A stretch of 64,000 nt of DNA from Spirosoma endbachense (lineage in GTDB: Bacteria; Bacteroidota; Bacteroidia; Cytophagales; Spirosomataceae): assembly GCF_010233585.1 (NCBI RefSeq), contig NZ_CP045997.1:4095715-4159714 (forward strand). The letters are read 5' to 3'. Of the stretch, positions 20,729 to 50,905 are shown piece by piece. Each line of letters begins with the position of its first letter. Position 1 is the first letter of the stretch. The notes under the pieces are model-generated. The model was not told where the DNA came from. It did not search any database and saw only the letters and a list, made by a program, of their open reading frames with translations. The translations under genes and the position numbers were made by a program.

Positions 20729-20766
20729 TGTCCGCAAGTGAACAACGGTTGTCCAGATGCGGACAG
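20729..20766. promoter_or_regulatory. Shared 38-bp activator-site element, copy 1 (TGTCC direct repeat plus TGTCC-N6-GGACA)
   Basis: TGTCC at 20729 and 20750 (exactly 21 bp apart); the second is half of the palindrome TGTCC-AGATGC-GGACA (20750-20765). Bases between the boxes (CAAGTG.AC) also agree with the two other copies at 29769 and 50790. It lies 54 bp upstream of a -24/-12-like promoter, a position expected for the enhancer site of a sigma-54 activator. Confidence 0.65.
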
Positions 20767-20819
20767 TAGCAAGTATTGGCACAAAGCGCAACTAACTGAT
20801 AATCAGCAGTTGCCTTACA

Positions 20820-20835
20820 TTGGCACAACCTTTGG
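20820..20835 (+). promoter_or_regulatory. Putative sigma-54 (-24/-12) promoter of the small exported protein gene
   Basis: TTGGCAC-AACCT-TTGG. The -24 part is a full match to the YTGGCAC consensus with the correct 5-base spacer to TTG; the last -12 base is G instead of C. The start codon is 60 bp downstream. It has the same architecture as the promoters at 29869 and 50890. A nearby TATAAT-like string (TCTATAATG) could also serve a vegetative sigma factor. Confidence 0.55.
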
Positions 20836-20895
20836 CTTATCTATAATGAACAGATAAACAACTCAATCTCACAAACACTAAACAACAATACAACC

Positions 20896-21273
20896 ATGTT
20901 ACTACCATTGATGAACAAATTGGCCGCTTCAATTCTGATGAGCACTGCCACCCTCGTAAACCCTACTACGCCAAAAACACTCTCTTTCGATGCAAGTGCC
21001 TATGTAACGATCAACAACCAGATCCGCGTTGCAGTCGTCAAGTCTGCCGACGTCCCCGTTGTTATCCTGCTTCGTAGTTCAGACCATCGGATTGTTTTCC
21101 GTCAGAGCATCGATAAGAAAGCCGAAAAATATGCAGTGAAGCTAAATGTTGATGAGTTGGTCGATGGCAAGTATGAGCTGGAAGTAGCCTCAAAAGAAGG
21201 CAGCATCCGGAAGCAATTGAATCTGTCTTCTCAGCCCGTGCAGCAAGCCAGCCGGGTTGTGGCCATGCAATAA
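20896..21273 (+). CDS. Small exported protein of unknown function (125 aa)
   Basis: The N-terminus MNKLAASILMSTATLVNPTTP (from Met6; Met1 is five codons earlier) looks like a Sec signal peptide. The mature part (about 100 residues) is beta-rich: FDASAYVTINNQIRVAVVKS, VPVVILLRSSDHRIVFRQSI, KYAVKLNVDELVDGKYELEVASKEGS. This reads like one Ig/Fn3-like sandwich, ending in a Gln/Ser-rich tail. Such single-domain exported proteins are common in Spirosoma-like genomes; I know no function. What stands out is the upstream control: the 38-bp activator element and the -24/-12 promoter shared with the two PadR cassettes. A good terminator follows. Confidence 0.75.
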   Translation: MLLPLMNKLAASILMSTATLVNPTTPKTLSFDASAYVTINNQIRVAVVKSADVPVVILLRSSDHRIVFRQSIDKKAEKYAVKLNVDELVDGKYELEVASKEGSIRKQLNLSSQPVQQASRVVAMQ

Positions 21274-21305
21274 GACAGACATTATAGTTCCACCTACACA
21301 TTACC

Positions 21306-21333
21306 CGAAAGCCCGGCACAAGTCGGGCTTTCG
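21306..21333 (+). terminator. Rho-independent terminator
   Basis: CGAAAGCCCG and CGGGCTTTCG pair perfectly over 10 bp with an 8-base loop, 33 bp after the small exported protein gene. The T-run is short. Confidence 0.7.
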
Positions 21334-21775
21334 TATTTAGTCAATGGCTGGTTTGCCAGGTTCAGTTATGATTCTACAGTTCTATACTGAACATTTGGAG
21401 TCGCATTTGACGAGTTATCCTGCTTGTATCGGCTTCCTGCACTTACTGATGGTTGATTAAATCGGTAAAGTTGATGAGGTCGTTACTTTCTTTAACAGCG
21501 TTTAGCGGGTATTGACGTGAGGTCAGGTTCTTCAACCTGGCCTCTGCGGTTTTGAGAAACCTCGTCAATTGGTTTTAAGAAACCGATATCACATCACAGA
21601 AATCAACGCCACAGCGATGGCGATATACCGTATTTCACAAATTAATACGTTGTCAATCGGCCGTGATCTGGCAGTAATGCCAACAACTTAAACTGTGCAT
21701 CATCAATGACTTAGTGAATACCAGACATGCTAACGTTCAGCATCCCGGTTAAGTCGACTTCACCAAAACGTCTAG
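21334..21775. other. Intergenic stretch, no gene seen
   Basis: No convincing coding frame. It holds two near-identical short palindromes of the form GGTTTT(G/A)AGAAACC at 21548-21561 and 21571-21584 (23 bp apart). The rest looks unremarkable and lies downstream of both flanking genes. Confidence 0.5.
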
Positions 21776-23647
21776 TCAGTGGGTGACCTTGTTCGTTAGC
21801 TTTTGAGGTCGGGAATGATAGCGCTTTAGAATAGACATGATCTTATGGTGAATCTGGGTATTCTCATAAACGCCCCGGAAGTCGAGTGAATGAGGGCCGT
21901 AAGCAAACACAGGCACCATTATTCCCGAGTGATCATTGGTACTGAAATGACCATCCACATAACCGCGCTTCAGGTCGCCATCGAGCAAACTCAATCCACC
22001 CGTTTCATGATCTGCGGTGATGATTACGAGTGTTTCGCCATTGGAATCAGCAAAACGCATGGCCTCCCCAATGGTTCGATCGAAATCCAGCATTTCCTGA
22101 ACGACATAGCTCATTTCATTGGCATGACCACCGTAGTCGATCTGAGCGCCTTCAGCCATAATAAAGAAGCCATTCTTATTTTCTTTTAACTCCGTAAGCG
22201 TTTTTTGAAGGCTTTTGACCAGAAAATCCTGGCGACCTTGTTTTATCGGAACGACCGCCTGATCATCGAGCAGCACGAAGGGGCGTTTGAGTCCTTCCAA
22301 TTGGTTAAAGCTCGTACCAATCTGGTATCCTCGCTGACGAAGTGTATCCAATACTTTTTCTTCCTGAAAATACCGATAACCACCACCAATCAGAATTTGC
22401 ACGGGCTCTCTCAAAAAATCGCCCGCAATTTCCCGTTCAAAGGCACGGTCTGGCTGGTGTGCATAAAAAACTGCCGGAGTTGCATCGGTAATCGGTCCCG
22501 CAGAAACAAGGCCACTGACCATGTCCCATTTTTTTATGAGAGTCGGAATGGCAGGCCACTGCCTGCCCGTCGAATCGACACCAATGGCCCGGTTGTTGGT
22601 TTTCTGACCGGTAGCCATGGCCGTTCCTCCGGCGGCCGAATCGGTAATATACGTGTCGGCGGCACTCGTTTTAGAGAACCCGATATTGAGCAGTTTTGCC
22701 AGATTAAGATCTCCCCGGTTAGCCGTGAGTCCGGCATAGATCTGGGCAAGACCCATCCCATCACCAATCAGCAGAATAACATTTTTGACACGACTACGGC
22801 TATCATTGTTGCGGTAAATGGGCTGATAAACCGGGTAGGGTGCAGGATTCTGATATTCGGCGGTTGGGCGTAAACTCAGGAAATGACCAAGCGGAGCGAT
22901 CTGATCGGTATTGATAAAGTCAACTTCCAGATTCATCAGCGTTTTCCAGGTGTTGATGTTATCGGGCGTAGCCCAGAATCGAATCTTCTTCCCCTGACGA
23001 TGAACCTGCTGAATTACTTGCTGAATCCTGACCCGTTCTTTTTTGACAATAAGTCCCTTTCCATTCCAACGGCTGTACTGGGTAAAGCTCTGGCTAATTA
23101 ACCCAATGTGGCCTGCCTGTTCAGGCGTATAATCGACCTCAGGTCGACCATCGAAAAGAATCCAGTCAGGGTATTGCTTAAATTGATCAGGTGCAGGCAC
23201 ATTGCCACTCACGACAACCCGCACCGGACCACCCGTACCAAAAACGTCTGGATAAGCACTCAGCGCCTGTACCAATAGTGGTAAAGACAGCCGAGCCGGT
23301 GTTTTCAGGTCGATCAGCCATTGAAGGCCATAGGTAGCTCCCGGATAAATTTGTCCTTTACCCGACCGGACTTTTTCCACAATTGGCTTGATGTACAAAG
23401 CCTCCAGCGTCCGACTGGCGGTTATATCGGCCGAATCATGGGCCACGTAGAGTTGCCCGTCCCGCCGGTAAACATCCGCTTCAATTGACCCAAATTTCTG
23501 GTCATAAGCCTGCCAGAACGGAATCGTCTGTTCATAGTCGTTATGCGAGTGGGCCTGGGCAGGTGTATAGCGACTAGCTGACTGGGCTCTGCCGTTGGAA
23601 ACGACGAGAGCCCAGAACAGCATCGACAAAAGCAGCGGACTTTTCAT
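21776..23647 (-). CDS. Fusion of a GDPD/PI-PLC-like domain with an alkaline phosphatase
   Basis: A 623-residue exported protein (signal peptide 1-22, ending RAQ). Residues about 28-255 resemble the glycerophosphodiester phosphodiesterase / PI-PLC barrel: AHSHNDYEQ, GSIEADVYRRDGQLYVAHD (Glu57, Asp59, His70), LIDLKT, ending in FINTDQ. Residues about 285-610 are a PhoA-type alkaline phosphatase: VKNVILLIGDGMG (Asp296), TDSAAGGTAMATG with the nucleophile Ser337, EGAQIDYGGHAN, ITADHETGG and the histidine of DHSGIMVPVFAYGP. The fusion could release glycerol phosphate from phosphodiesters and then strip the phosphate in the periplasm. The single catalytic histidine pattern of the first domain is not fully typical, so its activity is less sure than the phosphatase. 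Confidence 0.9.
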   Translation of the reverse strand: MKSPLLLSMLFWALVVSNGRAQSASRYTPAQAHSHNDYEQTIPFWQAYDQKFGSIEADVYRRDGQLYVAHDSADITASRTLEALYIKPIVEKVRSGKGQIYPGATYGLQWLIDLKTPARLSLPLLVQALSAYPDVFGTGGPVRVVVSGNVPAPDQFKQYPDWILFDGRPEVDYTPEQAGHIGLISQSFTQYSRWNGKGLIVKKERVRIQQVIQQVHRQGKKIRFWATPDNINTWKTLMNLEVDFINTDQIAPLGHFLSLRPTAEYQNPAPYPVYQPIYRNNDSRSRVKNVILLIGDGMGLAQIYAGLTANRGDLNLAKLLNIGFSKTSAADTYITDSAAGGTAMATGQKTNNRAIGVDSTGRQWPAIPTLIKKWDMVSGLVSAGPITDATPAVFYAHQPDRAFEREIAGDFLREPVQILIGGGYRYFQEEKVLDTLRQRGYQIGTSFNQLEGLKRPFVLLDDQAVVPIKQGRQDFLVKSLQKTLTELKENKNGFFIMAEGAQIDYGGHANEMSYVVQEMLDFDRTIGEAMRFADSNGETLVIITADHETGGLSLLDGDLKRGYVDGHFSTNDHSGIMVPVFAYGPHSLDFRGVYENTQIHHKIMSILKRYHSRPQKLTNKVTH

Positions 23648-23775
23648 TGAGTGATTAGCAAGCCGTCCTACTGATAAAGCAGTAACGGTCAGAGCGCTTT
23701 CGGTTTACTGAAGCACGGATAAATTTTTCCGGCCTGATTTGCGGCAAACAGGCCGGTATGTGTTTTTATAGTAAA

Positions 23776-24036
23776 CTAAGCCATTACACTTGCATCGGCC
23801 TCGCTCAGTTTCGCCTGTACTGCCCGAGCAAACGATACTTTGTCCGATTTTCGGTATTGTTCCGGAGACAAAGCTCCTGAATCGGGCGTAAAATCATCGG
23901 CAATGTGTAGGCAGGCTGCCCAAACTTCCGGATTTGTAACAATTTTGTACTGGCGAATGGGTGTATCGGCCCCAAACCAAAGCCCGATAATATTACTGAT
24001 AGTTACTTTCATTCGATGAGCCATCGGTACTTGCAT
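23776..24036 (-). CDS. Small hypothetical protein (86 aa)
   Basis: Met9 (MKVTISNIIGLWFGADTP) is a plausible alternative start. The protein is soluble, with an amphipathic C-terminal half (SPEQYRKSDKVSFARAVQAKLSEADASVMA). No known domain recognised. Good composition and its place between other minus-strand genes support it as real. It lies in the same direction as the phosphatase fusion but is separated from it by about 130 bp. Confidence 0.55.
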   Translation of the reverse strand: MQVPMAHRMKVTISNIIGLWFGADTPIRQYKIVTNPEVWAACLHIADDFTPDSGALSPEQYRKSDKVSFARAVQAKLSEADASVMA

Positions 24037-24099
24037 TTATTGAAAAAGATGAAGACGTGATTTGCATTTATTCTCACTTTACCGGCCTTACTTGTACGC

Positions 24100-25158: not shown

Positions 25159-25223
25159 ATTTCAACAAGTAGATCAACCGAGAATTACATTATATTTACT
25201 ACCTGTTATTTCTGCTTTCTGCT

Positions 25224-29768: not shown

Positions 29769-29806
29769 TGTCCACAATAGTACGCTCCCTGTCCGTTTCT
29801 GGACAG
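29769..29806. promoter_or_regulatory. Shared 38-bp activator-site element, copy 2
   Basis: TGTCCACAA at 29769, TGTCC again at 29790 (21 bp apart), the second within the palindrome TGTCC-GTTTCT-GGACA (29790-29805). It lies 63 bp upstream of the -24/-12-like promoter of the PadR/permease cassette. Upstream sequence back to about 29670 is also similar to the copy at 50715-50790, showing duplication of the whole control region. Confidence 0.7.
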
Positions 29807-29868: not shown

Positions 29869-29884
29869 TTGGCACTGGATTTGT
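29869..29884 (+). promoter_or_regulatory. Putative sigma-54 (-24/-12) promoter of the first PadR/permease cassette
   Basis: TTGGCAC-TGGAT-TTGT: full match to the -24 box, correct spacer, -12 box one base off (TTGT for TTGC). The string is identical in the second cassette at 50890. The start codon is 41 bp downstream. A vegetative promoter overlapping TTTATTATAAC just downstream is the alternative. Confidence 0.6.
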
Positions 29885-29924: not shown

Positions 29925-30263
29925 ATGAAAAGAACTTTTCTGGGGGAGTTTGAAGAAGTAGTCCTGCTGGTTTTAGCCGCCTGTGCTGACGATGCCTATG
30001 GAGTCGTTATCTGGGAGCAACTTCAGCAGCAGACCGGCCGCAGCATTACCATTAGTGCCGTACACGCCACGCTGTACCGACTCGAAGAAAAGGGCTATTT
30101 ATCCTCGCAGCTGGGTGGTGCCACCGCCGAACGGGGTGGCAGGCGAAAGCGGTACTTTGCCCTGACTGCTTTGGGCAGTAAAGCCCTACTGGAGATTCAG
30201 GCCATGCGTCAACAACTCTGGCAGGCTATTCCGGATGGCAAACTTCAATTGATTGGTCAATAA
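29925..30263 (+). CDS. PadR family transcriptional regulator, cassette 1
   Basis: A 112-residue winged-helix protein of the PadR type: FEEVVLLVLAACADDAYGVVIWEQLQQQTGRSITISAVHATLYRLEEKGYLSSQ spans the helix-turn-helix and wing, with the family RGGRRKRYFALTALG block, and a short C-terminal dimerisation helix. It is 20 bp upstream of a permease-prefix transporter gene, and the stop/start spacing is identical in the second cassette at 50945. In such pairs the regulator probably controls its own operon. Upstream is a sigma-54-like promoter with a palindromic activator site. Confidence 0.9.
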   Translation: MKRTFLGEFEEVVLLVLAACADDAYGVVIWEQLQQQTGRSITISAVHATLYRLEEKGYLSSQLGGATAERGGRRKRYFALTALGSKALLEIQAMRQQLWQAIPDGKLQLIGQ

Positions 30264-30283: not shown

Positions 30284-33040
30284 ATGGCTACTAACCAAGA
30301 ACAGACTGGACCACCAGATCGCAGAACGTCGGCCCGGCAGCCACCCCGCTGGGCTGATCGACTCCTGGAACGGTTCGTTTCGCCTTATCTGCTGGAAGAT
30401 GTGCAGGGTGACTTGCAGGAGATTTTTCATAAGCGTGTCGCTCAGGTGGGTATTGCGCAAGCTCGGCGTGAGTATGGCTGGGCCGTCCTGCATTACCTGA
30501 ACCCCTTCTTTGCAAAACCGCACTACCGCACCAACAATCTACCCAAGTATCCTCAATTCTCATCACTCCATCCGATCATGATTCGTAATTATCTAAAAAT
30601 CGCCTGGCGGAATCTCGCCAAGAACCGCGTATTTAGCCTGATTAATATTTTCGGACTTGCCATTGGAATGACTACCTGCCTTCTCATTCTTGAGGTGGTG
30701 AGTTTCCAGCTTAGTTTCGATACGTTTCATACGAACGCTAACCATATTTATCGGGTCGTAAACGACCGCTATCAACAGGGCAAGCTTATTCAGCATGGCA
30801 CCATTACTTATTCGGGCGTTGGAAAAGCAATGAAAGATGATTTTCCGGATGAGGTGTTAACCCACTCCAGGGTGGTCAAGTGGGGAGATATGGTACTTGA
30901 TGTCAATAATACGAAACACAAAGCCAGCAAAATCGCCGTTGATAACTCGTTCCTCTCCATGTTTTCGTTTCCATTATTGGCAGGCGATAAAAAAAGTGTA
31001 TTGGTAGCCCCCAATACAATCGTACTTACAGAACGGCTGGCAAAAAGGATGTTTGGTATAAAAAACAATGATTACCAATCCATTTTAGGAAAAACTGTCA
31101 AAATTGATAATTCGCCCAATCCCTATAAGCTTACCGGTGTCTGTTCGGATATTCCTGAAAATTCGCACTTAGATTTCGATTTTCTGATGTCCTATTCGAG
31201 CCTTTACAGCGGTGGGAATTTCAATTACAAAGAAGCTGACTATAATTTCACCGATTCCGATTTCTGGCATTATATACAACTCAAACCCAACATTGACTAT
31301 CGAGCCGTTCAAGCCAAACTCGACGCGTTTAGTAAACGGCATTTCCAAGGCAACGCCGTATCCGGCAGCGATGAAAAGTTTTATCTGCAACCCCTCAGCG
31401 AAGTGCATCTATATTCAGACTTTGAGTATGAAATCGGTAAGGTTGCTAACGGACAAATGGTTTGGGGCTTGTTTGCCATCGCCGTTTTCATGATAGTAAT
31501 TGCCTGGATTAATTACGTCAATTTGTCTACTGCCAAAGCCGTAGAACGAGCCAAAGAAGTAGGTATACGCAAAGTGGCAGGTTCACAACGTGGCCAACTT
31601 ATCAGGCAGTTTCTGATTGAATCGTTTGGCCTCAATTTGATTGCTCTGATCCTCACCCTGCTGTTTTTGGCTGTCAGTCAAACGGGTTTTAACAGGCTGA
31701 CTAACCTGCCCTTATCGCTGGCTAACCTGTTCAATCAAAGTCTGACAATTCCCTATTTTCCGTTCTATTTACTACTTGCGTTCGGATTGGGCGTAGTGCT
31801 GTCGGGTTATTACCCAGCTTTTATTTTGTCCTCCTTTCAGCCGCTGGCGGTGCTGAAAGGAAAATTTATGACTACTACCAAAGGGATTACTGTGCGAAAG
31901 TCTTTGGTCGTCTTTCAGTTTACGGCCACTATTTTCTTGCTGTTTGCCTCGATCGTGATGTTTCGCCAACTGAAATTCATGAGTGAAAAAGACCTGGGCA
32001 TTCATTTCAGCCAAATTCTTTCGGTTACGGCTCCTTCCCTGGCGTCCAACGATTCGTCGCGGGTAATCCGGGCCGAAACCTTCAAGCAAAGCCTCAAACA
32101 AATCGGTGGGGTGATGGAGGTTGCTTATACCGACCGGGAAATCGGGGGCGATATGGCCCGGACATTTGATGTACAAAACGTAGGGGGCGATAAAAATACC
32201 AAACTGACAATGCGGCATTTTGGCGTGAGTCGAGAGTTTTTATCGGTCTACCAGGTAAAACTACTGGCCGGAAGAAATTTTGTTTTCACGGATTACAATT
32301 ACAAGTTCGATTTGCTTCATAACGTAATTTTAAACCAGAAAGCGATCAAACAACTGGGCTATTCCAAACCTGACGATGCGATTGGGAAACAGCTAAAGCT
32401 GTTTGGGCGAAATTGGGACATTGTGGGGGTAGTTGATAATTTTCATCAAAAAGGGCTACGAAGCGCGGTTGATCCGCTGATTCTAATACCCACCTATAGC
32501 ACTTCTTTTCCGATTTCGGTGAAAGTGGAAACACAAAACCTTGAAGCCACCCTGGCTGCTATTAAGTCAGTTTACAAGTCCTTCTTTCCGCAAGATATAT
32601 TTGGCTACGCGTTTGTTGATGAACGGTTTAATCAACAATACAATAACGACCAACTTTTAGGCGAAGCCCTTTTGTTATTTTCCGGTTTGCTGATTTTCGT
32701 GGCCTGTTTAGGTCTTTTTGGCTTATCTTTTTTCGTGATCAATCAACGGACCAAAGAAATCGGTGTCCGCAAGGTTCTTGGTGCGTCCGTGATGAGTATC
32801 ACCGCTCTGGTGTCGAAAGATTTTCTCAAACTTGTTGTGATTGCGATGGTTATTGCTACCCCAATCGGGTGGTATACCATGCGCCGTTGGTTGAACGACT
32901 TCGCCTACAAAATCGATATCGAATGGTGGATGTTCGGACTGGCAGGCCTGCTGGCGATGGGCATTGCCTTACTAACCGTCAGTTTCCAGAGTATAAAGGC
33001 CGCCTTGCTGAATCCGGTCAAGAGTCTACGTACCGAATAG
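30284..33040 (+). CDS. Permease prefix domain 2-containing ABC transporter permease (MacB/FtsX type), cassette 1
   Basis: A 918-residue membrane protein. Residues about 20-85 form the permease prefix domain 2 (WADRLLERFVSPYLLEDVQGDLQEIF, then YGWAVLHYLNPFF). MIRNYLKIAWRNLAKNRVFSLINIFGLAIGM (about 103-135) starts a MacB-type periplasmic core domain; two FtsX four-helix permease units follow (about 390-530 with EVGIRKVAGSQRGQLIRQFLIES, and 785-918 with EIGVRKVLGASVMSIT). No ATPase gene is adjacent, so an ATPase encoded elsewhere is needed. Such proteins are usually duplicated many times in Spirosoma-like genomes; cargo unknown, possibly lipoproteins or antimicrobial compounds. Paralogue of the protein at 51304. 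Confidence 0.92.
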   Translation: MATNQEQTGPPDRRTSARQPPRWADRLLERFVSPYLLEDVQGDLQEIFHKRVAQVGIAQARREYGWAVLHYLNPFFAKPHYRTNNLPKYPQFSSLHPIMIRNYLKIAWRNLAKNRVFSLINIFGLAIGMTTCLLILEVVSFQLSFDTFHTNANHIYRVVNDRYQQGKLIQHGTITYSGVGKAMKDDFPDEVLTHSRVVKWGDMVLDVNNTKHKASKIAVDNSFLSMFSFPLLAGDKKSVLVAPNTIVLTERLAKRMFGIKNNDYQSILGKTVKIDNSPNPYKLTGVCSDIPENSHLDFDFLMSYSSLYSGGNFNYKEADYNFTDSDFWHYIQLKPNIDYRAVQAKLDAFSKRHFQGNAVSGSDEKFYLQPLSEVHLYSDFEYEIGKVANGQMVWGLFAIAVFMIVIAWINYVNLSTAKAVERAKEVGIRKVAGSQRGQLIRQFLIESFGLNLIALILTLLFLAVSQTGFNRLTNLPLSLANLFNQSLTIPYFPFYLLLAFGLGVVLSGYYPAFILSSFQPLAVLKGKFMTTTKGITVRKSLVVFQFTATIFLLFASIVMFRQLKFMSEKDLGIHFSQILSVTAPSLASNDSSRVIRAETFKQSLKQIGGVMEVAYTDREIGGDMARTFDVQNVGGDKNTKLTMRHFGVSREFLSVYQVKLLAGRNFVFTDYNYKFDLLHNVILNQKAIKQLGYSKPDDAIGKQLKLFGRNWDIVGVVDNFHQKGLRSAVDPLILIPTYSTSFPISVKVETQNLEATLAAIKSVYKSFFPQDIFGYAFVDERFNQQYNNDQLLGEALLLFSGLLIFVACLGLFGLSFFVINQRTKEIGVRKVLGASVMSITALVSKDFLKLVVIAMVIATPIGWYTMRRWLNDFAYKIDIEWWMFGLAGLLAMGIALLTVSFQSIKAALLNPVKSLRTE

Positions 33041-34268: not shown

Positions 34269-34278
34269 TAAAAGGTCC

Positions 34279-35280: not shown

Positions 35281-35428
35281 CGAACCCATCTAAAGCCCTA
35301 CGTTTCTTACTACTATTTAAGTCGACCATGCATATCGTGGCCGGGCAGGCCCCTTGTTGCCTCAACAACAATCTGAATTTTGTCCAATCGTACTTCTTTT
35401 CCGTCTAAACCTGAAAGTCAGCCAGCTT

Positions 35429-38400
35429 ATGATCAAAAAGTTATCTTTTCCAACTTTATTTTGGAAAATCATGAAAACATCGTTACAGCAGATAATATGC
35501 TGGTTGTTATGCAGTGGATTGGCAATGGCCCATCACGTGTCGGGTCAGGAAATCCTGACTAAACCGATCTCACTTGAGGTTGAGAGCTCAAGCCTAAAAA
35601 GCATTCTGTCGCTAATTGAAGATCAGGCGAAAATCCATTTCGTATACAGCACCAGTAACATTGATGTCAATCAGACGGTAAGCCTGAAAGTAACGAATAC
35701 GAAGCTCGAATCGGTCCTGAATGACCTCTTAAAACCATTGTCGATTAGCTATGGTGTGGTAGGGAATCGGATCATGTTGAAAAGTGACCGAAAAAATACG
35801 AAATCATCCAGCCTCTCAGAACCTGACCCTTCCTTAAAAACAACAGGAAGACTAGTGAATGGCACCGTTATGGACGAAAAAAAATCGGGTTTATCGGGAG
35901 TCAATGTGTTGCTAAAAGGAACACGGTCGGGTACGACAACGGATAAAAATGGAAAATTTAGCATCAACATCGACAACGATAACAGTGTCCTAGTTTTTTC
36001 ATTTGTGGGCTATGGGACGCAGGAAGTCCCCGTTGGGAATCGCGACGATATTGAGGTTTTCCTGGCCGAGGATAATAAAAACCTGACTGAAGTGCTGGTC
36101 GTTGGGTATGGTACGCAGAAAAAGATCAATCAAACGGGAGCCATTGATGTCATTAAGGGCGACGCGTTGATCAACAGACCGACCACTACTCTGTCGCAGA
36201 CAATGCAGGGTAAAACATCGGGTGTTAATTTTTCCGCGGGCTCGTATGGATTCGAACCCGGAGCCGCTTTGGGCATTCAGATCCGTGGACAAGGCGCTCC
36301 ACTTGTGCTGATCGACAATGTAGTAGGTTCACTTAATGGGCTGAATCCAAATGATGTTGAGTCGATTTCTGTATTAAAAGATGCAGCGGCTTCCGCCATT
36401 TATGGCGCCCGTGCCCCTTACGGCGTAGTCCTAATCACAACCAAATCGGGGAGTAACAGCAATAAAATAAACATTGAATTTTCGGCCAGTACAACCAGTA
36501 TTACCCCCTATCGTATGCCGCATTTGGCCGACTCCTATACGACAGCACTGGCTTTAAATGAAGCCGCTGCCAATACGAAAGTACCTGCCATCTATACTAA
36601 TGCAACGATTGAACGGATTCTGGCCTATCAGAAAGACCCAATAAACACGCCGGAAACGGTCCCGAGTGCAGCCAATGCCGCACTTTGGGCAAACCTGTAT
36701 GAAAGTAATGCCAATTATGATTGGTTCAATGTGTACTATGGCAAGGGAAATCGTAACCAGCAAAATATTGCACTGAGCGGTGGTTCGAAGACGTTTAACT
36801 TTTACTTATCCGCTGGTCGGCAGTATGATGGGGGGGTTCTTCAGGTGGCAACCGACAATTACAAGCGCTATAATACCATTGCCAAATTCGAGGCTAACCT
36901 GACAAACTGGCTAAAGCTCTCTTCCAATAGTCGGTATTATACTACGGCACGCCAGGTTCCGGCTTATGACAACCAGGGCAATTACGATTTGTTATTTCAT
37001 CAGGTTGCCCGAACCTTTCCTTCTCAGTACATGAAATCGCCCAATGGTGTCTATTCGATCCAGTCGAAGATTCCCTGGACGAATAACGCCGGTAATGAGA
37101 CTACACGGATCAACGATTTTGTTCAACGTTTTGCTCTCGAACTGACTCCCCTCAAAAACTGGACGGTAAACGCTGATTTTACATACCAACTAACAGCCAG
37201 TGAGTTCACATCGAACAATTTTACGGTATACGAAGATGCTGTCAATGGGACCCCAATTGTGTCGGGCAGTACCGCACCTGCCTACGTTGCCAAAGCGCAG
37301 AATTTGTATCTGTATACTACCTTGAATGCCTTTACGACGTATAAATTCGATATAGCGGATAAACATCATGTGTCTGTTTTGGGGGGCTACCAGCAGGAGA
37401 AATCAAAAACTGCCTATTTATATGCCAAACGGAATAATCTGGTATCTTCAGAAGTTCCCTCGATACGGACATCAACCGGGCCGGTTGATGCCATCGATTC
37501 ACTTGCTCCCTACGGTACACAGGGATTCTTTTCCCGACTTACCTATAATTTTAAAGAACGATACCTGTTCGAGTTTAACTCGCGCTACGACGGTACCTAC
37601 AAATTTGCTCAGGGCAAACGGTGGGGCTTCTTTCCGTCGCTATCGGCTGGCTGGAATATGTCGGAAGAGCGGTTCTGGTCGCCGATTGCCAATGCGATCA
37701 ATAACTTTAAAGTACGCGGATCATGGGGACAACTGGGTAACCAGTTAACGGCGGCTGCTTATCAGGATATTCCACTCATTGGAACCAGTAGCAACCTTGC
37801 GTATATTATCAATGGAGTCAGGCCAAGTTATACGACTCCGCCCAATCTAATAAACCCCGATATTACCTGGGAAACCGTTACGACCTCCAATCTAGGCATC
37901 GACATCGGGCTGCTCAGAAACCGATTACAACTGACCACCGAAGTATATCGTCGGAAAACAACCGATCAGTTAGGCCCTTCACAAGCCTTACCAGCGGTCC
38001 TTGGTGCGACAATCCCCCAATCAAATAACATGGAAACAGCCACCAACGGATGGGAATTCAACTTGACCTGGAATGACCGGATCGGCAAAGATTTTAGCTA
38101 CTCCATAACGGGTATGATGTTCGATTACCTGACAAAAATTACCAAATACAACAACCCGACTAAATTGTTAACGAATCCGTATGCGGGAAAAACACAGGGC
38201 GAAATTTGGGGACTCGTTTCAGAAGGACTTATTCGAACGCAGGAACAGGCCGATCTGATTAACAGGAATGGTACGCAGAAGACAATTTCAGGTCAGGTCT
38301 GGAACACAGGCGATATGCAATACGGCGACTTGAATGCCGATGGCGTGATTAACTACGGGAATAACACCGTCGATAATCCGGGCGATAGAAAAATAATTGG

Positions 38401-38938
38401 GAATAATACCCCTCGCTATCAATTTGGACTAACACTTGCCGCCAAATGGAAAGGATTTGATTTTTCGATGTTCTGGCAAGGCAGTGCCAAACGCGACCTC
38501 GATTTATCTGGCAATTTCCTTTACGGATTCTCCACCACGGTTCAAGGGTCTATTTTCCCAGATCATCTGGATTATTACCGGGATTCGGATGCTACAAAGT
38601 ATGCAGGGTTAGGAAAAAATATGGACGCTTATTTCCCTCGCCCTTACCTCAATGCGGATATGAATAACAAAAACCAGCTTATTCAGACTCGCTACCTGCA
38701 AAACGGGGCCTATGCACGATTGAAGAACATTCAACTGGGCTATACAGTGCCAGCATCCGTTCTTGAAAAAATTAAACTCCGGCAGGTGTATGTCTATCTA
38801 TCGGGCGAAAACCTGATCACCCTTACCAAATTACCCCCTCATTTTGACCCCGAAACGGCAAATGTTGGTGTAAGAGGCAACGGTAAATCGTACTTTTCGC
38901 AACAAGCTTTGACAATGGGCATCAATCTTAAATTTTAA
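35429..38938 (+). CDS. SusC/RagA TonB-linked outer membrane transporter with N-terminal STN domain
   Basis: A 1169-residue protein from the ATG giving MIKKLSFPTLFWKIMKTSL; a 25-codon upstream extension is possible but lacks support. Signal peptide ends near HHVSGQ. The STN (secretin/TonB short N-terminal) domain covers about 45-115 (SSLKSILSLIEDQAKIHFVYST), a carboxypeptidase-regulatory-like domain about 140-215, and the plug about 220-340 (VGYGTQKKINQTGAIDVI, SISVLKDAAASAIYGARAPYGVVLITTKSG), then the barrel ending MGINLKF. The STN domain makes it a signalling transporter acting on the FecR protein. Substrate unknown; the broken sulfatase downstream hints at a sulfated polymer or glycosaminoglycan-like material. 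Confidence 0.95.
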   Translation: MIKKLSFPTLFWKIMKTSLQQIICWLLCSGLAMAHHVSGQEILTKPISLEVESSSLKSILSLIEDQAKIHFVYSTSNIDVNQTVSLKVTNTKLESVLNDLLKPLSISYGVVGNRIMLKSDRKNTKSSSLSEPDPSLKTTGRLVNGTVMDEKKSGLSGVNVLLKGTRSGTTTDKNGKFSINIDNDNSVLVFSFVGYGTQEVPVGNRDDIEVFLAEDNKNLTEVLVVGYGTQKKINQTGAIDVIKGDALINRPTTTLSQTMQGKTSGVNFSAGSYGFEPGAALGIQIRGQGAPLVLIDNVVGSLNGLNPNDVESISVLKDAAASAIYGARAPYGVVLITTKSGSNSNKINIEFSASTTSITPYRMPHLADSYTTALALNEAAANTKVPAIYTNATIERILAYQKDPINTPETVPSAANAALWANLYESNANYDWFNVYYGKGNRNQQNIALSGGSKTFNFYLSAGRQYDGGVLQVATDNYKRYNTIAKFEANLTNWLKLSSNSRYYTTARQVPAYDNQGNYDLLFHQVARTFPSQYMKSPNGVYSIQSKIPWTNNAGNETTRINDFVQRFALELTPLKNWTVNADFTYQLTASEFTSNNFTVYEDAVNGTPIVSGSTAPAYVAKAQNLYLYTTLNAFTTYKFDIADKHHVSVLGGYQQEKSKTAYLYAKRNNLVSSEVPSIRTSTGPVDAIDSLAPYGTQGFFSRLTYNFKERYLFEFNSRYDGTYKFAQGKRWGFFPSLSAGWNMSEERFWSPIANAINNFKVRGSWGQLGNQLTAAAYQDIPLIGTSSNLAYIINGVRPSYTTPPNLINPDITWETVTTSNLGIDIGLLRNRLQLTTEVYRRKTTDQLGPSQALPAVLGATIPQSNNMETATNGWEFNLTWNDRIGKDFSYSITGMMFDYLTKITKYNNPTKLLTNPYAGKTQGEIWGLVSEGLIRTQEQADLINRNGTQKTISGQVWNTGDMQYGDLNADGVINYGNNTVDNPGDRKIIGNNTPRYQFGLTLAAKWKGFDFSMFWQGSAKRDLDLSGNFLYGFSTTVQGSIFPDHLDYYRDSDATKYAGLGKNMDAYFPRPYLNADMNNKNQLIQTRYLQNGAYARLKNIQLGYTVPASVLEKIKLRQVYVYLSGENLITLTKLPPHFDPETANVGVRGNGKSYFSQQALTMGINLKF

Positions 38939-38958
38939 CTCCCTTCGATCCAGGAATT

Positions 38959-40695
38959 ATGAGAAATAAACTTTTTATACTCATCTGTTTAAGTACGATG
39001 GTGGTTTCCTGCGAAGTATTGGATCAACCACCTCTGGATAAAATTTCTAATGATCAGTATTGGAAAACACCGAGCGATCTTGAAAACTACATGTATCAGT
39101 TTTATCCAAGTTTTCCAACGTACAGAAGTATCTCCAATAACGTTCTGGGTACCATCGGCAGGGACGCCGTTCAGGGTTCGGATCATCAGATTACGCAAAC
39201 ACCAGTCAATGCCCTAAACGGCACTCAAAGCATTGTTCTTTCGGGCGGAAACTGGACTTGGGATAACATTCGTGGGGTCAACATTTTTTTCGAAAATTAT
39301 ACGAAGGTTAATGCCCCAGCCGAAAATATCAGGCAATATGTAGGAGAAGCGCATTTTTTTAAGGCATGGTACTATTTTGAAAAAGTACGGCAATATGGCG
39401 ACGTACCCAGCTATAGTACGTCTTTACAACTTGACTCAAAAGAGCTGTATAACCCCAGAACACCCAGAACGGGTGTGGTTGACTCGATCCTATGGCACCT
39501 GGATCAGGCTGTCGATAAGCTGTTCCCGTTAAGTTCGGTCAGTGGAGGAAACAACCGCCTGAGCAAAGAAGCGGCCTTGTTGTTCAAATCCAGAGTGGCA
39601 CTCTTTGAAGGCTCCTGGCAGAAATATCATGCCGGAACTGCATTTGGCAGCATCGGGGGCGATCCTAAAAAATACTTCACCCAGGCAGCACAGGCAGCCG
39701 CCGAGTTGATGAAACCCGGCAAATATAAAGTTGGGATTACCGGAACTAGTGCCGACGATTATTCCAGGCTTTTTTCTTCGACGAACCTGTCTGGCAATAA
39801 TGAGATTATACTCTGGGCCAAATTTGATAAAAATCTGAATACCCTTTCACACAATTTCCAGCAGTCCGTGACTGCCTATACCAATCCGATAAGCGTTACG
39901 TATGAACTTATTCAGAATTACCTAGGAAAAGACGGTAAGTTCTACGATTACGCGGGATTAGCCAAGGTCAAGAAAGGGTCGGCCTTTCTGGATGAAATCG
40001 GCAGCGCTTGTGATCCCAGACTCAAACAGGTTGTATGGGTGCCTGGCCAGACCATGTGGGACAACTCAGCCGGGAAATCGGTATTCTCAAAGCCGTTTTT
40101 AGATCTGTCGAACAGCAGTGGCTTTCAGTTGCACAAAGGAGCTGATCCTAAAGACCCAACAGCTGGAGGAGCTCAGGGTTTTAGCACAGCGTGCGAAACA
40201 GGGGCTGTAATTTTCAGATATGCAGAAGCCTTATTAAACTATGCCGAAGCCAAAAGTGAACTGGGTGAAGTTGTCGATTACAGCGTTTCGCTCAATTTAT
40301 TACGCAAGCGTGCCGGAATGCCGGACTTTACGGTTCAATCAGACCCTAATCGGGCTAAATATGCCAATTTTGGGTACAGTCTTACTGACGAACTGTATGA
40401 AATCCGCCGGGAGCGTGCTGTCGAACTGGCCTGCGAAGGCTTTCGCTATGACGATTGGCGACGTTGGCGAGCTCATGCCCTGTTTACCGGAAAACGTCCG
40501 CTCGGCTTTCCTTTTCTACAGTCCGAATATGCAGCAAACCTAGTTGTACCGACCAATGCTGATGGACTAGTCGATCCATTTAAAACCAATCTGCCCGCTG
40601 GCTATAATTTCAATGCAGGCCGGGATTATCTGGAATCTATTCCTACAAATGAACTAACATTGAATCCTAACCTTAAACAAAATCCGGGCTGGTAG
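38959..40695 (+). CDS. SusD/RagB family nutrient-binding lipoprotein
   Basis: A 578-residue lipoprotein: leader MRNKLFILICLSTMVVSC (lipobox ending at Cys18), then EVLDQPPLDKISNDQYWKTPSDLENYM, the usual SusD opening. Conserved blocks include GEAHFFKAWYYFEKVRQYGDVP, ETGAVIFRYAEALLNYAEAKSELGE and ELYEIRRERAVELACEGFRYDDWRRW. It starts 20 bp after the SusC stop and forms the surface lid of that transporter. Confidence 0.96.
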   Translation: MRNKLFILICLSTMVVSCEVLDQPPLDKISNDQYWKTPSDLENYMYQFYPSFPTYRSISNNVLGTIGRDAVQGSDHQITQTPVNALNGTQSIVLSGGNWTWDNIRGVNIFFENYTKVNAPAENIRQYVGEAHFFKAWYYFEKVRQYGDVPSYSTSLQLDSKELYNPRTPRTGVVDSILWHLDQAVDKLFPLSSVSGGNNRLSKEAALLFKSRVALFEGSWQKYHAGTAFGSIGGDPKKYFTQAAQAAAELMKPGKYKVGITGTSADDYSRLFSSTNLSGNNEIILWAKFDKNLNTLSHNFQQSVTAYTNPISVTYELIQNYLGKDGKFYDYAGLAKVKKGSAFLDEIGSACDPRLKQVVWVPGQTMWDNSAGKSVFSKPFLDLSNSSGFQLHKGADPKDPTAGGAQGFSTACETGAVIFRYAEALLNYAEAKSELGEVVDYSVSLNLLRKRAGMPDFTVQSDPNRAKYANFGYSLTDELYEIRRERAVELACEGFRYDDWRRWRAHALFTGKRPLGFPFLQSEYAANLVVPTNADGLVDPFKTNLPAGYNFNAGRDYLESIPTNELTLNPNLKQNPGW

Positions 40696-47623: not shown

Positions 47624-48241
47624 ATGAAAACAGTCTTGATTTTACTCTGTCTACCTATTTATTTTCCTGGCTATAGCCAGTTGAACCCTGGCCCGGTAAA
47701 AATGCCGATCGATAGTACATCAGGGCATATTCAGTTTCAGCAAGTCGTCTTTCTGGAACCAGATATGAATACGGAGGCAATCATTTGGAAAGCCAAAGTC
47801 TGGGTCGACATAACTTACCCAAGCACAAAGAATCCCATCCAGCAGTATAATTCCAAATCGGGCATCCTCGTTGTAAAAACCCAATTCCCGGTAACCCGAA
47901 CCAGTTATTACCTGGATCAACCAACAACAGAGACTATAACTGTTTACCACACAGTAACCATTGAAGCCAAGCCAGGGCGATACCGGGTAACACTATCCAA
48001 CTACGAAATGGGGGTTGATGGACAACGGACAATCCTGGCCGCCAACCGGGGTACAATGGATCGGGAAGAATATATAGCCATGGTGCGTAAGCAAGCCAGA
48101 GGTACGAGCACGGAGCAGGCTTTTATAAAATCGGTGGTAAAGAATCCCGATTCGGCCATAACCTCAGAAAGGCTATTTATGGCCGATGTCAAACAGCAGA
48201 GCTTAACGCTTCTGAAGATGCTCAAGCGGCATATGCTCTGA
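47624..48241 (+). CDS. DUF4468 (TBP-like fold) domain-containing exported protein
   Basis: A 205-residue protein: signal peptide (1-18, MKTVLILLCLPIYFPGYSQ), then a DUF4468-like domain at about 30-130 with STSGHIQFQQVVFLEPDMNTEAIIWKAKVWV, QYNSKSGILVVKTQF and KPGRYRVTLSNYEM. The C-terminal 70 residues are helical (TMDREEYIAMVRKQARG, TSERLFMADVKQQSLTLLKMLKRHM). This family is common in Bacteroidota as small exported proteins; function unknown. It appears intact inside the decay zone. Confidence 0.8.
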   Translation: MKTVLILLCLPIYFPGYSQLNPGPVKMPIDSTSGHIQFQQVVFLEPDMNTEAIIWKAKVWVDITYPSTKNPIQQYNSKSGILVVKTQFPVTRTSYYLDQPTTETITVYHTVTIEAKPGRYRVTLSNYEMGVDGQRTILAANRGTMDREEYIAMVRKQARGTSTEQAFIKSVVKNPDSAITSERLFMADVKQQSLTLLKMLKRHML

Positions 48242-48302
48242 CCAATCGAGCGTTTTGGGTATGCTACATCCAAACTGTTGGCTCTTACGCACTTTGTGTG
48301 GT

Positions 48303-48628
48303 TCACCACCGATAAAGTACTCGTTGACGCAGTAAGTCGAGGTTGGCTCGCCCGTACATCTGCCGTTTGATCAGTTTAAGTCTGGTTACCTGCCCTTCGG
48401 TTTGTCCGCGCCACGGTGGCCTTCGGCGTTCCGATGAAGCCGAAGGCCACCGTGGCGCGGACAAACTGCTGGAGTAACATGGCCTAACAAGTTTGGCAAC
48501 GGCCTAACCAATCGTTTAATAATTCTGCTTGACGAGCTCGAACCATGGCCGCAAAGTCCTTCACTAAATCAGAGACCTGATCAATAATCGAGTCCTGACA
48601 AACATAGCGATCAGCCGCTTTCAGTCAG
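48303..48628 (-). pseudogene. ISL3-family transposase remnant (C-terminal part)
   Basis: Minus-strand translation gives ADRYVCQDSIIDQVSDLVKDFA then MVRARQAELLNDWLGRCQT, a stop, then after the inverted duplication GQTEGQVTRLKLIKRQMYGR followed by ANLDLLRQRVLYRW. The last block is the strongly conserved C-terminus of ISL3-family transposases. Between the two parts the expected region ending WSNGQ has been replaced by a perfect inverted duplication (48400-48466) that puts GQTEG into another frame. No intact IS ends were recognised. Confidence 0.8.
48400..48466. repeat. Perfect 28-bp inverted repeat inside the ISL3 remnant
   Basis: Arms at 48400-48427 and 48439-48466 are exact reverse complements (GTTTGTCCGCGCCACGGTGG... 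and its complement) with an 11-base loop. The arm is transposase-coding at its outer end (codons for GQT), so it seems to have arisen by inverted duplication of a piece of the transposase gene. There is no T-tract, so it is not a standard terminator. Confidence 0.85.
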
Positions 48629-49413
48629 CCTAGAGTGGGCACATTAAGAAAATTCCGGCCCGATCAGGCCACTTCCCAGGAAATTGCTTCGGCTTTGGTT
48701 GGCGCGGAAGGGTTGACCGGACAGGATCCACAGGAATACTTGCGCAGAACTCTGTACATGCTTTCGCCTGTGTATTATTAATTCAATGCGGTTGATCCAT
48801 TTGAAGTCGAATGGACCAAACAAGGTTGGGCTGGATCGGGGATAAGATAACAACAGCTAGACATAAACAAGCGGGCGCTGAGCTTGAAAGAGCAACAGGC
48901 AAAAAACGCGACTGGACACGGGGCGCTTAGTTCGTGGAATGTGACCACCTCGCCACAAAATGTTGGTACTAAAAATCGCAGGGTCTATCGGGGCCAGTAC
49001 CAGTTACTGTTGTTGACAGCAACATGAGCCCGGCGCAAAAACCCGGCTTCAATTCCCATTTGGGGGTTAATAGCTCGCTTATCATTAATGAGATAATGGA
49101 GGGCTTCCGGGCGCTCGTCGGGTGAAGAACAAAGATACTGGCGAAGCTGGTTGGGAAACGAATCGGCTTGCAACGCTTATCTGACCATTCCCAATCAGGC
49201 AGGTGGATGGGATATGCGTAAAACGAATTTTTCCGGCCTGAACGTGCGAATTGTTAAAGTGGGCGATTTGTATTTTGATGATAGTCGGTCAACGGCAGGT
49301 GAGCAGGCTCCCGATCTTGATCGAGACACCGAACCGGTTCTTTTATCGAATCAGGCAGACAGATTCTTAACGATTGACGGAGATTGGGTTGTTCGATTCG
49401 GGAAAACTACGGA
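48629..49413. other. Degraded stretch with short coding-like fragments
   Basis: No intact gene. Coding-looking pieces on the plus strand include DQATSQEIASALVGAEGLTG continuing to YLRRTLYMLSPVYY (about 48665-48780) and LDINKRALSLKEQQAKNATG continuing to RRVYRGQYQLL (about 48855-49020). A minus-strand 62-codon frame lies at 48985-49173 and a plus-strand frame from 49151. None could be matched to a family; they look like remains of one or more broken genes. This is also where a LytTR response regulator would be expected after the LytS-type kinase, but none is present. Confidence 0.4.
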
Positions 49414-50511
49414 TCACGCCAGAGTTGCTATCAGGCTCAGAGTCACTACAAACTGCCCATGCTCTTCTTGTATTGTCGGGGCCGGTTGCTTGAGCATCTC
49501 ATACTTTCTCAGAATATTATCAAGCCCCACCCCATTGGATAAGACCCGGACGGTTTTGCGCTGTATGTTATTACGCACTTGTAATTGGGGGCCGTCAAGG
49601 GTCAGGATATCAATCTGAAGGGGCTGGTCGGGAAGCACAATATTATGCTTGACGGCGTTTTCGACCAATAATTGTAACGTTAGGGGAGGTAGTTGGAACC
49701 GCTGGTAGTCGCGGTTGATGGTGACCGATAAGTTCAGTCCCGAGCCATGCCGGGTTTTCAACAGGCTGAAATACGAATGAATAAAGTCCAGTTCGGAATC
49801 CAGATCGGTCAGATGGTGGTCATTGGAGCGGAGCAGGTAGCGGTAAACCGTACTCAGTTCTTCGAGAAACTTTCGGGCCTGGGGTGGATCGTCTTCGATC
49901 AGTGAATCCAATACATTGAGGCTATTAAAGAGGAAATGTGGATTCACCTGCTGCTTAAGCGCATCCAGCTGGCTTTGTAGATTCTCGGCTCGTAACTCCT
50001 CTTTTTCTTGTTCCACTCGTTTGAGCTGGCGCTGATAAAGGGATGAATCACGAGCAAAAAACAAGGTTTCATACAGGGCCTGAAAGACGCTAAAGTTGAC
50101 GGCACCCTTCAATAGGTGAAACCCATAAAAACTCAGGTTAAGGCTCATGCCATTAAGGGTGACGCTGGCCGTATGTGTTGCGGGCTGGTATCCCAGCAGG
50201 CTCCCCTGAGCGATCCAATGCCGAAGTGCTCCTACGAGCCAGCTTAGTAGCGTAGTGGCCACACTACCGGCCAAAAAGGTGTAGCCCCACCGTTTTGCCC
50301 GCTGCCATTTTTGCGAGTATTGGGCCCGGAAATAAAAAATGATGGCCCTGATCAGCTGCCAGGTAACAGTAAAGTAAACAAAGTTAATGACAATCCAGGT
50401 CAGGCTTTCCTTGGTCAGGGGTTTCTGGTGCCAGCCATAGATAAAAAAGTTAAGGAAGACCAACAACGGAATACCAATGAGTCGTACCCATTTATCATTA
50501 ATTGTTTTCAA
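49414..50511 (-). CDS. LytS/AlgZ-type sensor histidine kinase (His_kinase family)
   Basis: About 365 residues. The N-terminal half has several transmembrane segments (LIGIPLLVFLNFFIYGW, LTWIVINFVYFTVTWQLI, YTFLAGSVATTLLSWLVG and more), then a coiled coil (RVEQEKEELRAENLQSQLDALK). The His_kinase box QVNPHFLFNSLNVLDSLI follows, with LPPLTLQLLVENAVKHNI (N-box) and a short ATPase domain ending VTLSLIATLA. I prefer a TTG start giving M-KTINDKWVRLIGIP, which matches how family members begin; an ATG 24 codons upstream (50583) also keeps the frame open. These kinases nearly always pair with a LytTR response regulator next door; here the expected site is degraded sequence, so it is an orphan. Confidence 0.87.
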   Translation of the reverse strand: MKTINDKWVRLIGIPLLVFLNFFIYGWHQKPLTKESLTWIVINFVYFTVTWQLIRAIIFYFRAQYSQKWQRAKRWGYTFLAGSVATTLLSWLVGALRHWIAQGSLLGYQPATHTASVTLNGMSLNLSFYGFHLLKGAVNFSVFQALYETLFFARDSSLYQRQLKRVEQEKEELRAENLQSQLDALKQQVNPHFLFNSLNVLDSLIEDDPPQARKFLEELSTVYRYLLRSNDHHLTDLDSELDFIHSYFSLLKTRHGSGLNLSVTINRDYQRFQLPPLTLQLLVENAVKHNIVLPDQPLQIDILTLDGPQLQVRNNIQRKTVRVLSNGVGLDNILRKYEMLKQPAPTIQEEHGQFVVTLSLIATLA

Positions 50512-50789
50512 GCATAAGTGAATTAAGGGCCCTACGTGTACAAATATAGCCAATCCATGAATTGCATGGAGTAACCAAACCATGCAGGGCGATCCGTCCC
50601 ATTCACGGGGTGATTAATCGTATCGGTCCAGGGTTGCCCATCAATCAGGCTCGCTGGTCAATGCCGGACATCGTGAACAGTACCGATTTCAAATCAGACC
50701 TGTTCCGATCAATCATACAGCGTGGTTTACCCCGCTTAAACCGGTCTCCGTTCAACCGTGGACGGCTTTTCCCTGTTCCCTATTCTTAC

Positions 50790-50827
50790 TGTCCACAAGT
50801 GTACGCCAACTGTCCGTTTATGGACAG
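50790..50827. promoter_or_regulatory. Shared 38-bp activator-site element, copy 3
   Basis: TGTCCACAA at 50790 and TGTCC at 50811 (21 bp apart); the second belongs to the palindrome TGTCC-GTTTAT-GGACA (50811-50826). It ends 63 bp before the -24 box of the second PadR/permease cassette, the same distance as in cassette 1. Confidence 0.7.
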
Positions 50828-50889
50828 CCATTACTCAACTATTCAGGACAATTAGGGCCTCATGAAGCCCAATCGCTGTATCACCTAAA

Positions 50890-50905
50890 TTGGCACTGGA
50901 TTTGT
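50890..50905 (+). promoter_or_regulatory. Putative sigma-54 (-24/-12) promoter of the second PadR/permease cassette
   Basis: TTGGCAC-TGGAT-TTGT, identical to the promoter at 29869 and embedded in a roughly 35-bp block that is nearly unchanged between the cassettes. The start codon is 40 bp downstream. Confidence 0.6.

What the first reader, a model, noticed from the sequence alone, without database searches (positions are those of the whole stretch)
20729..50905. A shared sigma-54-like promoter plus 38-bp activator element controls three separate loci
Seen: at 20729, 29769 and 50790 the same element occurs, with TGTCC boxes exactly 21 bp apart and the second box inside TGTCC-N6-GGACA. In each case a TTGGCAC-N5-TTG promoter follows 54, 63 and 63 bp downstream of the palindrome, then a gene at 20896, 29925 and 50945. 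Known: sigma-54 promoters are TGGCAC-N5-TTGC, and NtrC-type activators bind palindromes some 60-150 bp upstream. Inferred: a sigma-54 regulon with a dedicated activator that binds TGTCC-N6-GGACA (with a third half-site one or two helical turns up) and switches on PadR/permease cassettes and a small exported protein. The fixed 21-bp phasing (two helical turns) suggests binding of two dimers on one DNA face. I know of no description of such a regulon for these transporters in this group.
Basis: partly seen in the sequence, partly recalled or inferred. Interest (0 to 1): 0.85.

Follow-up and report, generated by a model that had tools for sequence, protein, structure and literature searches.

The report
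One switch for dozens of permeases
Three gene starts in this Spirosoma-type bacterium carry the same DNA switch, and the same switch sits before dozens of membrane-pump genes that lack their own motor and before one motor gene, which suggests that one sensor system turns on a large set of pumps together.

Summary
TGTCC-N6-GGACA occurs 47 times in this 10.3-Mb Spirosoma-type genome against 8 for the reversed pattern. Palindrome plus TGGCA-N6-TTG promoter gives 28 matches here (control 0) and is present in 73 of 150 family genomes, 362 matches against 1 control match. The palindrome-to-promoter gap is quantised: 149 of 150 listed matches fall at 51-55, 62-66 or 73-76 bp. The genome has one RpoN. 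One NtrC-type response regulator (1282612-1283988) is conserved beside a HlyD-ABC ATPase operon; 18 of 19 HlyD upstream regions read carry the element, exact or degenerate. Targets are mainly duplicated 'orphan' permeases, often with PadR: 79 were read, 43 of them in one ~135-kb array. None has ATPase motifs, and their most conserved segment is the coupling-type motif. Best reading: a sigma-54 two-component regulon that co-induces one HlyD/ATPase pair and dozens of permeases, which may share that ATPase. Regulator binding and sharing are inferred. A 2025 survey reported sigma-54 enrichment for this permease family; the activator, site, phasing and single-ATPase architecture were not found in the papers searched.

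The parts
20729..20744 (+). degenerate upstream activator palindrome (UAS1) of element A, TGTCCGCAAGTGAACA
20750..20765 (+). activator palindrome (UAS2) of element A, TGTCC-N6-GGACA
20797..20805 (+). TGANNNTCA box (TGATAATCA) 24 bp upstream of TGGCA; unknown factor
20820..20834 (+). sigma-54-type promoter TTGGCAC-N5-TTG (gap 55 to TGGCA)
20896..21273 (+). 125-aa putative exported protein; named relatives are from Spirosoma, some labelled DUF3244; three paralogues in this genome also have the element
29769..29784 (+). degenerate palindrome UAS1 of element B, TGTCCACAATAGTACG
29790..29805 (+). palindrome UAS2 of element B
29869..29883 (+). sigma-54-type promoter TTGGCAC-N5-TTG (gap 64 to TGGCA)
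29925..30263 (+). PadR-family regulator, 112 aa (Pfam PadR over cut-off; padR_acidobact below cut-off)
30284..33040 (+). 918-aa duplicated MacB/FtsX-type permease with permease prefix domain 2; no ATPase domain; ADOP-like (below cut-off)
50790..50805 (+). degenerate palindrome UAS1 of element C, TGTCCACAAGTGTACG
50811..50826 (+). palindrome UAS2 of element C
50890..50904 (+). sigma-54-type promoter TTGGCAC-N5-TTG (gap 64 to TGGCA)
50945..51283 (+). PadR-like regulator, 112 aa (Pfam PadR E 8e-5, under its cut-off)
51304..53955 (+). 883-aa duplicated MacB/FtsX-type permease with permease prefix domain 2

Best explanation
The three elements are members of a large sigma-54 regulon. An NtrC-type response regulator (G000 1282612-1283988, with histidine kinase 1278684-1280066 nearby) binds tandem TGT(C/T)C-N6-G(G/A)ACA palindromes 21 bp apart and, through helically phased short loops (gap about 53, 64 or 75 bp), activates RNA polymerase-sigma54 at TGGCA-N6-TTG. 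The targets are one HlyD adaptor + ABC ATPase operon, a ~135-kb array of duplicated MacB/FtsX permeases, about 22 dispersed PadR-permease operons, some permeases without PadR, and a few putative secreted proteins. The product would be an envelope-stress or antimicrobial-compound efflux response in which many substrate-specific permeases are made together with one energising ATPase/adaptor pair. Shown by sequence: the elements, their conservation, phasing and targets, and the lack of ATPase motifs in the permeases. Inferred: that this regulator binds this site, sigma-54 dependence of transcription, the inducing signal, and sharing of the ATPase.
For: 47 palindromes v 8 control in the genome; combined pattern 28 v 0 here, 362 matches in 73 of 150 family genomes v 1 control match; 149 of 150 listed gaps in three bands one helical turn apart; one RpoN; the regulator has Response_reg, Sigma54_activat and HTH_8 domains; of 19 HlyD upstream regions of this locus type that were read, 12 have the exact palindrome and 6 a degenerate one, each with a promoter-like element; also at the orthologous locus of named Larkinella, Dyadobacter and Chitinophaga; of 27 family genomes without a regulator match at 1e-90, 1 has the pattern, of 123 with it 72 (Fisher p 5e-8); degenerate sites with correct spacing at permease operons that lack an exact palindrome; 79 permeases without Walker A or LSGGQ match, KEIGVRKVLGAS the most conserved 12-mer; in 36 genomes of the genus 2-5 such ATPases per genome (E up to 1e-60) while permease-domain candidates range 21-180.
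Against: No transcript or binding data. The activator's sigma-contact loop reads GAFTDA, not GAFTGA; a GAFTDA activator is listed with targets in Desulfovibrio (PMC4641369) but VfmH of Dickeya with GAFTDA gave no sigma-54 in a pull-down (PMC10714721). The base after TTG is C in only 9 of 42 own promoters with at most one mismatch. Of 47 exact palindromes 4 stand alone with no promoter-like element at an allowed gap and 3 have only one with two mismatches. 51 of 123 family genomes with a regulator match have no exact combined pattern. Only 2 of 52 more distant loci (L193-L244) show the relaxed element.
Confidence: 0.83

Rival explanations
1. The palindrome is bound by another protein (one of the other 14 strong sigma-54 activators, or a repressor such as the PadR proteins), and the response regulator beside HlyD is only an ordinary local regulator.
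For: 15 strong Sigma54_activat proteins exist in the genome; PadR genes sit in many of the operons.
Against: Of the 15 strong activators only this one lies within 20 kb of an exact palindrome (places), and the adjacency recurs over many genera. Elements without any PadR gene exist (HlyD operon, small exported proteins, solo permeases), so PadR is not the common binder. The rigid helical phasing to a promoter fits an activator.
Confidence: 0.12
2. The promoter is not sigma-54 type but a housekeeping Bacteroidota promoter (-7 TAnnTTTG, -33 TTTG; recalled consensus), the TTGGCAC match being incidental.
For: 32 of 42 own promoters with at most one mismatch end in TTTG.
Against: Only 2 of these 42 read TAnnTTTG at that place; HlyD-class promoters such as TGGCACGACTATTG have no TTTG; GG and the TTG box at fixed spacing are the constant parts.
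Confidence: 0.05
3. Permeases do not share the HlyD-neighbour ATPase; they act without ATP or with other ATPases, and co-regulation is only a common stress response.
For: No biochemical link; three other ATPases at 53-56% identity exist.
Against: The coupling-type motif is the most conserved segment of 79 permeases, present in the second half of all 79 and in both halves of 72; the core ATPase is a single gene, 93-100% identical over full length, in 34 of 36 genomes of the genus while permease numbers vary several-fold.
Confidence: 0.45
4. The shared elements spread only by duplication of PadR-permease cassettes and carry no common control.
For: Elements B and C precede paralogous operons; three palindromes in the genome share near-identical flanks.
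Against: Unrelated genes (HlyD-ATPase, the 125-aa protein, a PF00144 protein, a DUF4097 protein) have the element with unrelated flanks and other gap classes; the element recurs at orthologous places across genera.
Confidence: 0.03

Closest known systems
sigma-54 control of COG0577 / FtsX-like ABC permeases (PLoS One 2025, PMC12316311; passages read)
   Different: The passages read give no activator, activator site or phasing for it and no PadR-permease operons or arrays; the text does not hold the word Spirosoma.
ADOP (acidobacterial duplicated orphan permease, TIGR03434) with padR_acidobact (TIGR03433)
   Same: Duplicated MacB/FtsX permease without ATPase, PadR gene next door, large paralogous family (family description recalled).
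   Different: Both matches are far below the curated cut-offs (287 of 622 bits; 32 of 102 bits). RAST labels 28 and 33 such genes in two Dyadobacter (PMC11573002, passage read).
Darobactin exporter DarBCD / MacAB-type export
   Same: Separate adaptor, ATPase and permease; the HlyD and ATPase proteins match the DarC and DarD models best among NCBIfam families.
   Different: Below the equivalog cut-offs (199 of 450; 279 of 375); here one pair faces dozens of permeases.
NtrC-family two-component activators (ZraR, NtrC1)
   Same: Receiver, AAA+ and Fis-type HTH; best PDB sequence match ZraR.
   Different: GAFTDA loop; presumed palindrome TGTCC-N6-GGACA.
Shared ABC ATPase MsmK of streptococci (PMC4519317; start of abstract in the listing and passages read)
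   Same: One ATPase serving several separately encoded permease systems.
   Different: Sugar importers with a handful of partners; here exporter-type permeases, dozens, and sharing is only inferred.

Membership tests
sigma-54 (RpoN) regulon | RpoN encoded in the genome | tested here: met
   one Sigma54_AID match over cut-off, 491-aa frame
sigma-54 (RpoN) regulon | -24/-12 element with GG and GC 10 bp apart | tested here: inconclusive
   TGGCA-N6-TTG, so GG-N10-G is met; the base after TTG is C in 9 of 42 own promoters (T 17, A 11, G 5)
sigma-54 (RpoN) regulon | activator-dependent start 11-13 nt after the -12 box | not testable with these tools
   no transcript data
NtrC-type enhancer-binding response regulator | receiver + Sigma54_activat + Fis-type HTH | tested here: met
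NtrC-type enhancer-binding response regulator | exact GAFTGA loop | tested here: not met
   GAFTDA in the activator, in 30 of 30 family loci and 76 of 80 named loci (others 2 GSFTDA, 1 GAYTGA, 1 GAFTGA); GAFTDA is listed among variants that would keep activity (PMC4641369)
NtrC-type enhancer-binding response regulator | binds upstream activator palindromes | not testable with these tools
   only conserved adjacency and spacing
ADOP (TIGR03434) | score over the curated cut-off | tested here: not met
   287 and 271 bits against 622
ADOP (TIGR03434) | two MacB_PCD/FtsX halves, no ATPase domain | tested here: met
permease prefix domain 2 transporters (NF038404) | score over cut-off | tested here: met
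   87.2 and 88.9 bits against 35
PadR | Pfam PadR over gathering score | tested here: inconclusive
   29925-30263: 32.4 v 27, met; 50945-51283: 22.9 v 27, not met, though 81% identical to the first
DarBCD | equivalog cut-offs | tested here: not met

The most novel reading that the evidence does not exclude
A single two-component system and a single ATPase/adaptor pair serve as a common socket for some 80 interchangeable orphan permeases: the bacterium makes the whole permease repertoire on one sigma-54 signal, with PadR proteins trimming individual operons, so that 'orphan' permeases are not orphans but clients of one ATPase.
Probability: 0.4. Interest if true: 0.87.

Novelty: new variant of a known kind. 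Interest (0 to 1): 0.68.

Why it matters
Duplicated orphan permeases form a large paralogous family here (79 read in this genome) with no known energiser. A common switch that also controls one ATPase/adaptor operon gives a concrete, testable answer to what drives them. The three-band spacing in dozens of natural promoters is also a ready data set on how close, helically phased enhancer sites work with sigma-54.

Tried and rejected
IHF between site and promoter: WATCARN4TTR was found in 0 of the spacers of the loci held, though some sequences in the list looked like it by eye; not claimed. Housekeeping promoter reading: rejected. PadR as the common binder: rejected, see rivals. The degenerate scan with up to three mismatches also gave hits with no sensible gene (for example 1333146, 4335626, 9173686, 9214531), so two- and three-mismatch sites are counted apart. 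The first motif scan for GAFTGA used a pattern that missed many loci; it read 14 of the 15 strong own activators (L024 unread), and one search repeated it for the relatives. The permease counts are capped at 62 scored matches per genome, so I used its candidate column, a loose count. One search used the 150 places transcribed from the cut listing, and promoters with two palindromes are counted twice there. The seven genomes not listed without a regulator match were found by elimination. Paper searches without a description of this regulon: (open-licence PMC only).
Full report
What is in the window. Each consists of a degenerate palindrome, 21 bp further a perfect TGTCC-N6-GGACA, and then TTGGCAC-N5-TTG. 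Measured from the palindrome's end to TGGCA the gaps are 55, 64 and 64 bp. The first drives a 125-aa putative exported protein (named relatives are from Spirosoma, some labelled DUF3244); the other two drive PadR plus a ~900-aa permease with two MacB/FtsX halves and permease prefix domain 2. The permeases and PadR resemble ADOP and padR_acidobact but fall below those curated cut-offs.

Genome-wide. The window is part of a 10.33-Mb single-contig genome. Its activator is 91% identical to that of Spirosoma terrae, so the genus is most likely Spirosoma. The palindrome occurs 47 times against 8 for the reversed pattern. The 37-bp tandem form has 23 exact placements at 22 places, one being read on both strands. 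Of the 47 exact palindromes 30 have a perfect TGGCA-N6-TTG at an allowed gap, 9 have one mismatch, 3 have two mismatches, and 5 have none; one of those five is the outer partner of a tandem (gap 84). By a hand estimate (random bases, GG fixed, at most one other mismatch, 18 gaps, both strands) about 0.5 of 47 would be expected with at most one mismatch.

Conservation. The combined pattern (palindrome, 48-78 bp, TGGCA-N6-TTG) was searched in 150 family genomes: 73 have it, 362 matches in all, 334 outside this genome, against 1 match for the reversed control. In a draw of 395 genomes of the phylum 15 have it, against 1 with a control match; 4 of the 15 are of the family, the others scattered. 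Allowed gaps were 48-78, yet of the 150 places listed, 149 fall in 51-55, 62-66 or 73-76 and one at 68. So the site must face the promoter on one side of the helix. Promoters with two palindromes are counted twice in that list.

The activator. One RpoN and 15 strong sigma-54 activators are present. One of them, 1282612-1283988, has receiver, AAA+ and Fis-type HTH domains. It lies 1.9 kb from the palindrome at 1285886, which precedes a HlyD adaptor and an ABC ATPase; a histidine kinase lies near and is directly next to the regulator in many relatives. I read 19 HlyD upstream regions, the own one and 18 of the 20 regions fetched (L131 has no HlyD nearby; L133 was taken from another place). Twelve have the exact palindrome, nine of them with a perfect promoter towards HlyD and three (L124, L125, L130) with one mismatch; six have a degenerate palindrome with a perfect or one-mismatch promoter; in L126 there is nothing in the 330 bp before HlyD, but a degenerate tandem pair with a one-mismatch promoter lies elsewhere in that locus. 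In the named set, 19 of the first 28 loci (L165-L192; Larkinella, Dyadobacter, Chitinophaga and others) show the relaxed element within the locus, but only 2 of the remaining 52 (L193-L244). Loci that read CGTCC, such as L132 and L135, are missed by that scan. A regulator match at E 1e-90 is found in 123 of 150 family genomes; 72 of these and 1 of the 27 others have the combined pattern. Phylogeny, genome size and paralogues confound this test.

A caveat about the activator. Its sigma-contact loop reads GAFTDA, as in 30 of 30 family loci and 76 of 80 named loci. Among the 14 own activators in which a motif was read, three have GAFTDA (1283038, 1498169 and 6114887 by their one search places) and eleven GAFTGA or GSFTGA. 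All three lie within about 5 kb of an ATPase of the same type. One Desulfovibrio GAFTDA activator is listed with target operons (PMC4641369, passages read); Dickeya VfmH with the same loop gave no sigma-54 in a pull-down (PMC10714721, passage read). The neighbour system at 1497761-1502264 has a different HTH (TRMALYRRLGK against SRQALYRRLEK), and the only site-promoter pair found in that stretch reads TGTTC-N6-GAACA, as expected if the HTH sets the half-site.

Targets. Downstream of 1285886 lies a run of about 135 kb (1286-1421 kb) with 43 complete permease ORFs of at least 700 aa, all on one strand, with further exact palindromes at 1296149, 1310559, 1327622, 1347023, 1364382 and 1384800. Outside it 36 complete permeases were read in fetched stretches. 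Of these, 23 stand behind a site plus promoter with at most one mismatch in total, 5 behind one with two or three mismatches, and 8 have none within 900 bp; 5 of the 8 are later genes of runs that start with a site (9714888, 9720232, 10165833, 10168596, 10171269), and 3 have no site (316233, 1499868, 2816806). Two- and three-mismatch sites are less certain, since the same kind of scan gave some senseless hits. PadR is found behind 22 dispersed elements and 3 in the array. Other targets are four copies of the 125-aa protein, two paralogous secreted proteins of which the one scanned is PF00144 (beta-lactamase fold), a DUF4097 protein and two putative secreted proteins without a family.

One ATPase. 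None of the 79 permeases has a Walker A or LSGGQ match, every one has a motif of the type KEIGVRKVLGA in its second half, and 72 have it in both halves. In an alignment of the 79 this is the most conserved 12-residue stretch and the first-half copy the third. That this is the segment that touches the ATPase is recalled from MacB-type structures. The genome has four ATPases of this kind above 50% identity, the core one included. This fits one ATPase/adaptor pair for many permeases, but it is not a proof.

Mechanism proposed. A membrane signal passes from the kinase to the response regulator, which occupies the two palindromes on one DNA face, loops over one of three phased distances, and opens the sigma-54 promoter. 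HlyD, ATPase and permeases are made together; PadR proteins probably tune their own operons. The neighbours in Spirosoma (ArnT-like transferase, fatty acid desaturase, acyltransferase) point to envelope stress as the signal. This paragraph is inference.

Known or new. A 2025 survey (PMC12316311, passages read) reports sigma-54 enrichment for the permease COG, also in Bacteroidia. Two Dyadobacter genomes are reported with 28 and 33 'duplicated orphan permease' genes (PMC11573002, passage read). My ten paper searches gave no description of this activator, site, phasing or single-ATPase arrangement. It is a new variant of a known kind of regulon, with a bold and testable consequence.

Noticed in passing
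G000:C1:1286000-1421600 (L076-L082): A ~135-kb run of 43 duplicated MacB/FtsX permease ORFs on one strand behind one HlyD-ATPase pair.
   Followed up: yes
window 20797-20805 and the spacers of other elements: A TGANNNTCA box lies 23-24 bp before TGGCA in 15 of 31 elements of the short gap class (0.41 expected by shuffling), 1 of 18 in the middle class at another place, 5 of 15 in the long class, whose promoters overlap the short class; its binder is unknown, and orthologous elements are not independent.
   Followed up: partly
L144 (G000:C1:1497761-1502404): Paralogous GAFTDA activator with its own ATPase and permease and a TGTTC-N6-GAACA site 52 bp before a TGGCACGCCCATTG promoter.
   Followed up: partly
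L043 and L046: By eye, a hairpin with a T-run, terminator-like, lies between palindrome and promoter in these array elements.
   Followed up: no
L051 2517-3914 and L053: Two paralogous secreted proteins behind the element; the L051 one is a PF00144 (beta-lactamase-fold) protein.
   Followed up: partly
window 49414-50583: Histidine kinase of the His_kinase (PF06580) type, divergent from element C.
   Followed up: no
window 35354-40695 and 11573-18667: A TonB-plug protein followed by a SusD-family protein (35354-38938, 38959-40695), and a TonB-dependent receptor near a family-20 glycoside hydrolase (15554-18667, 11573-13846).
   Followed up: no
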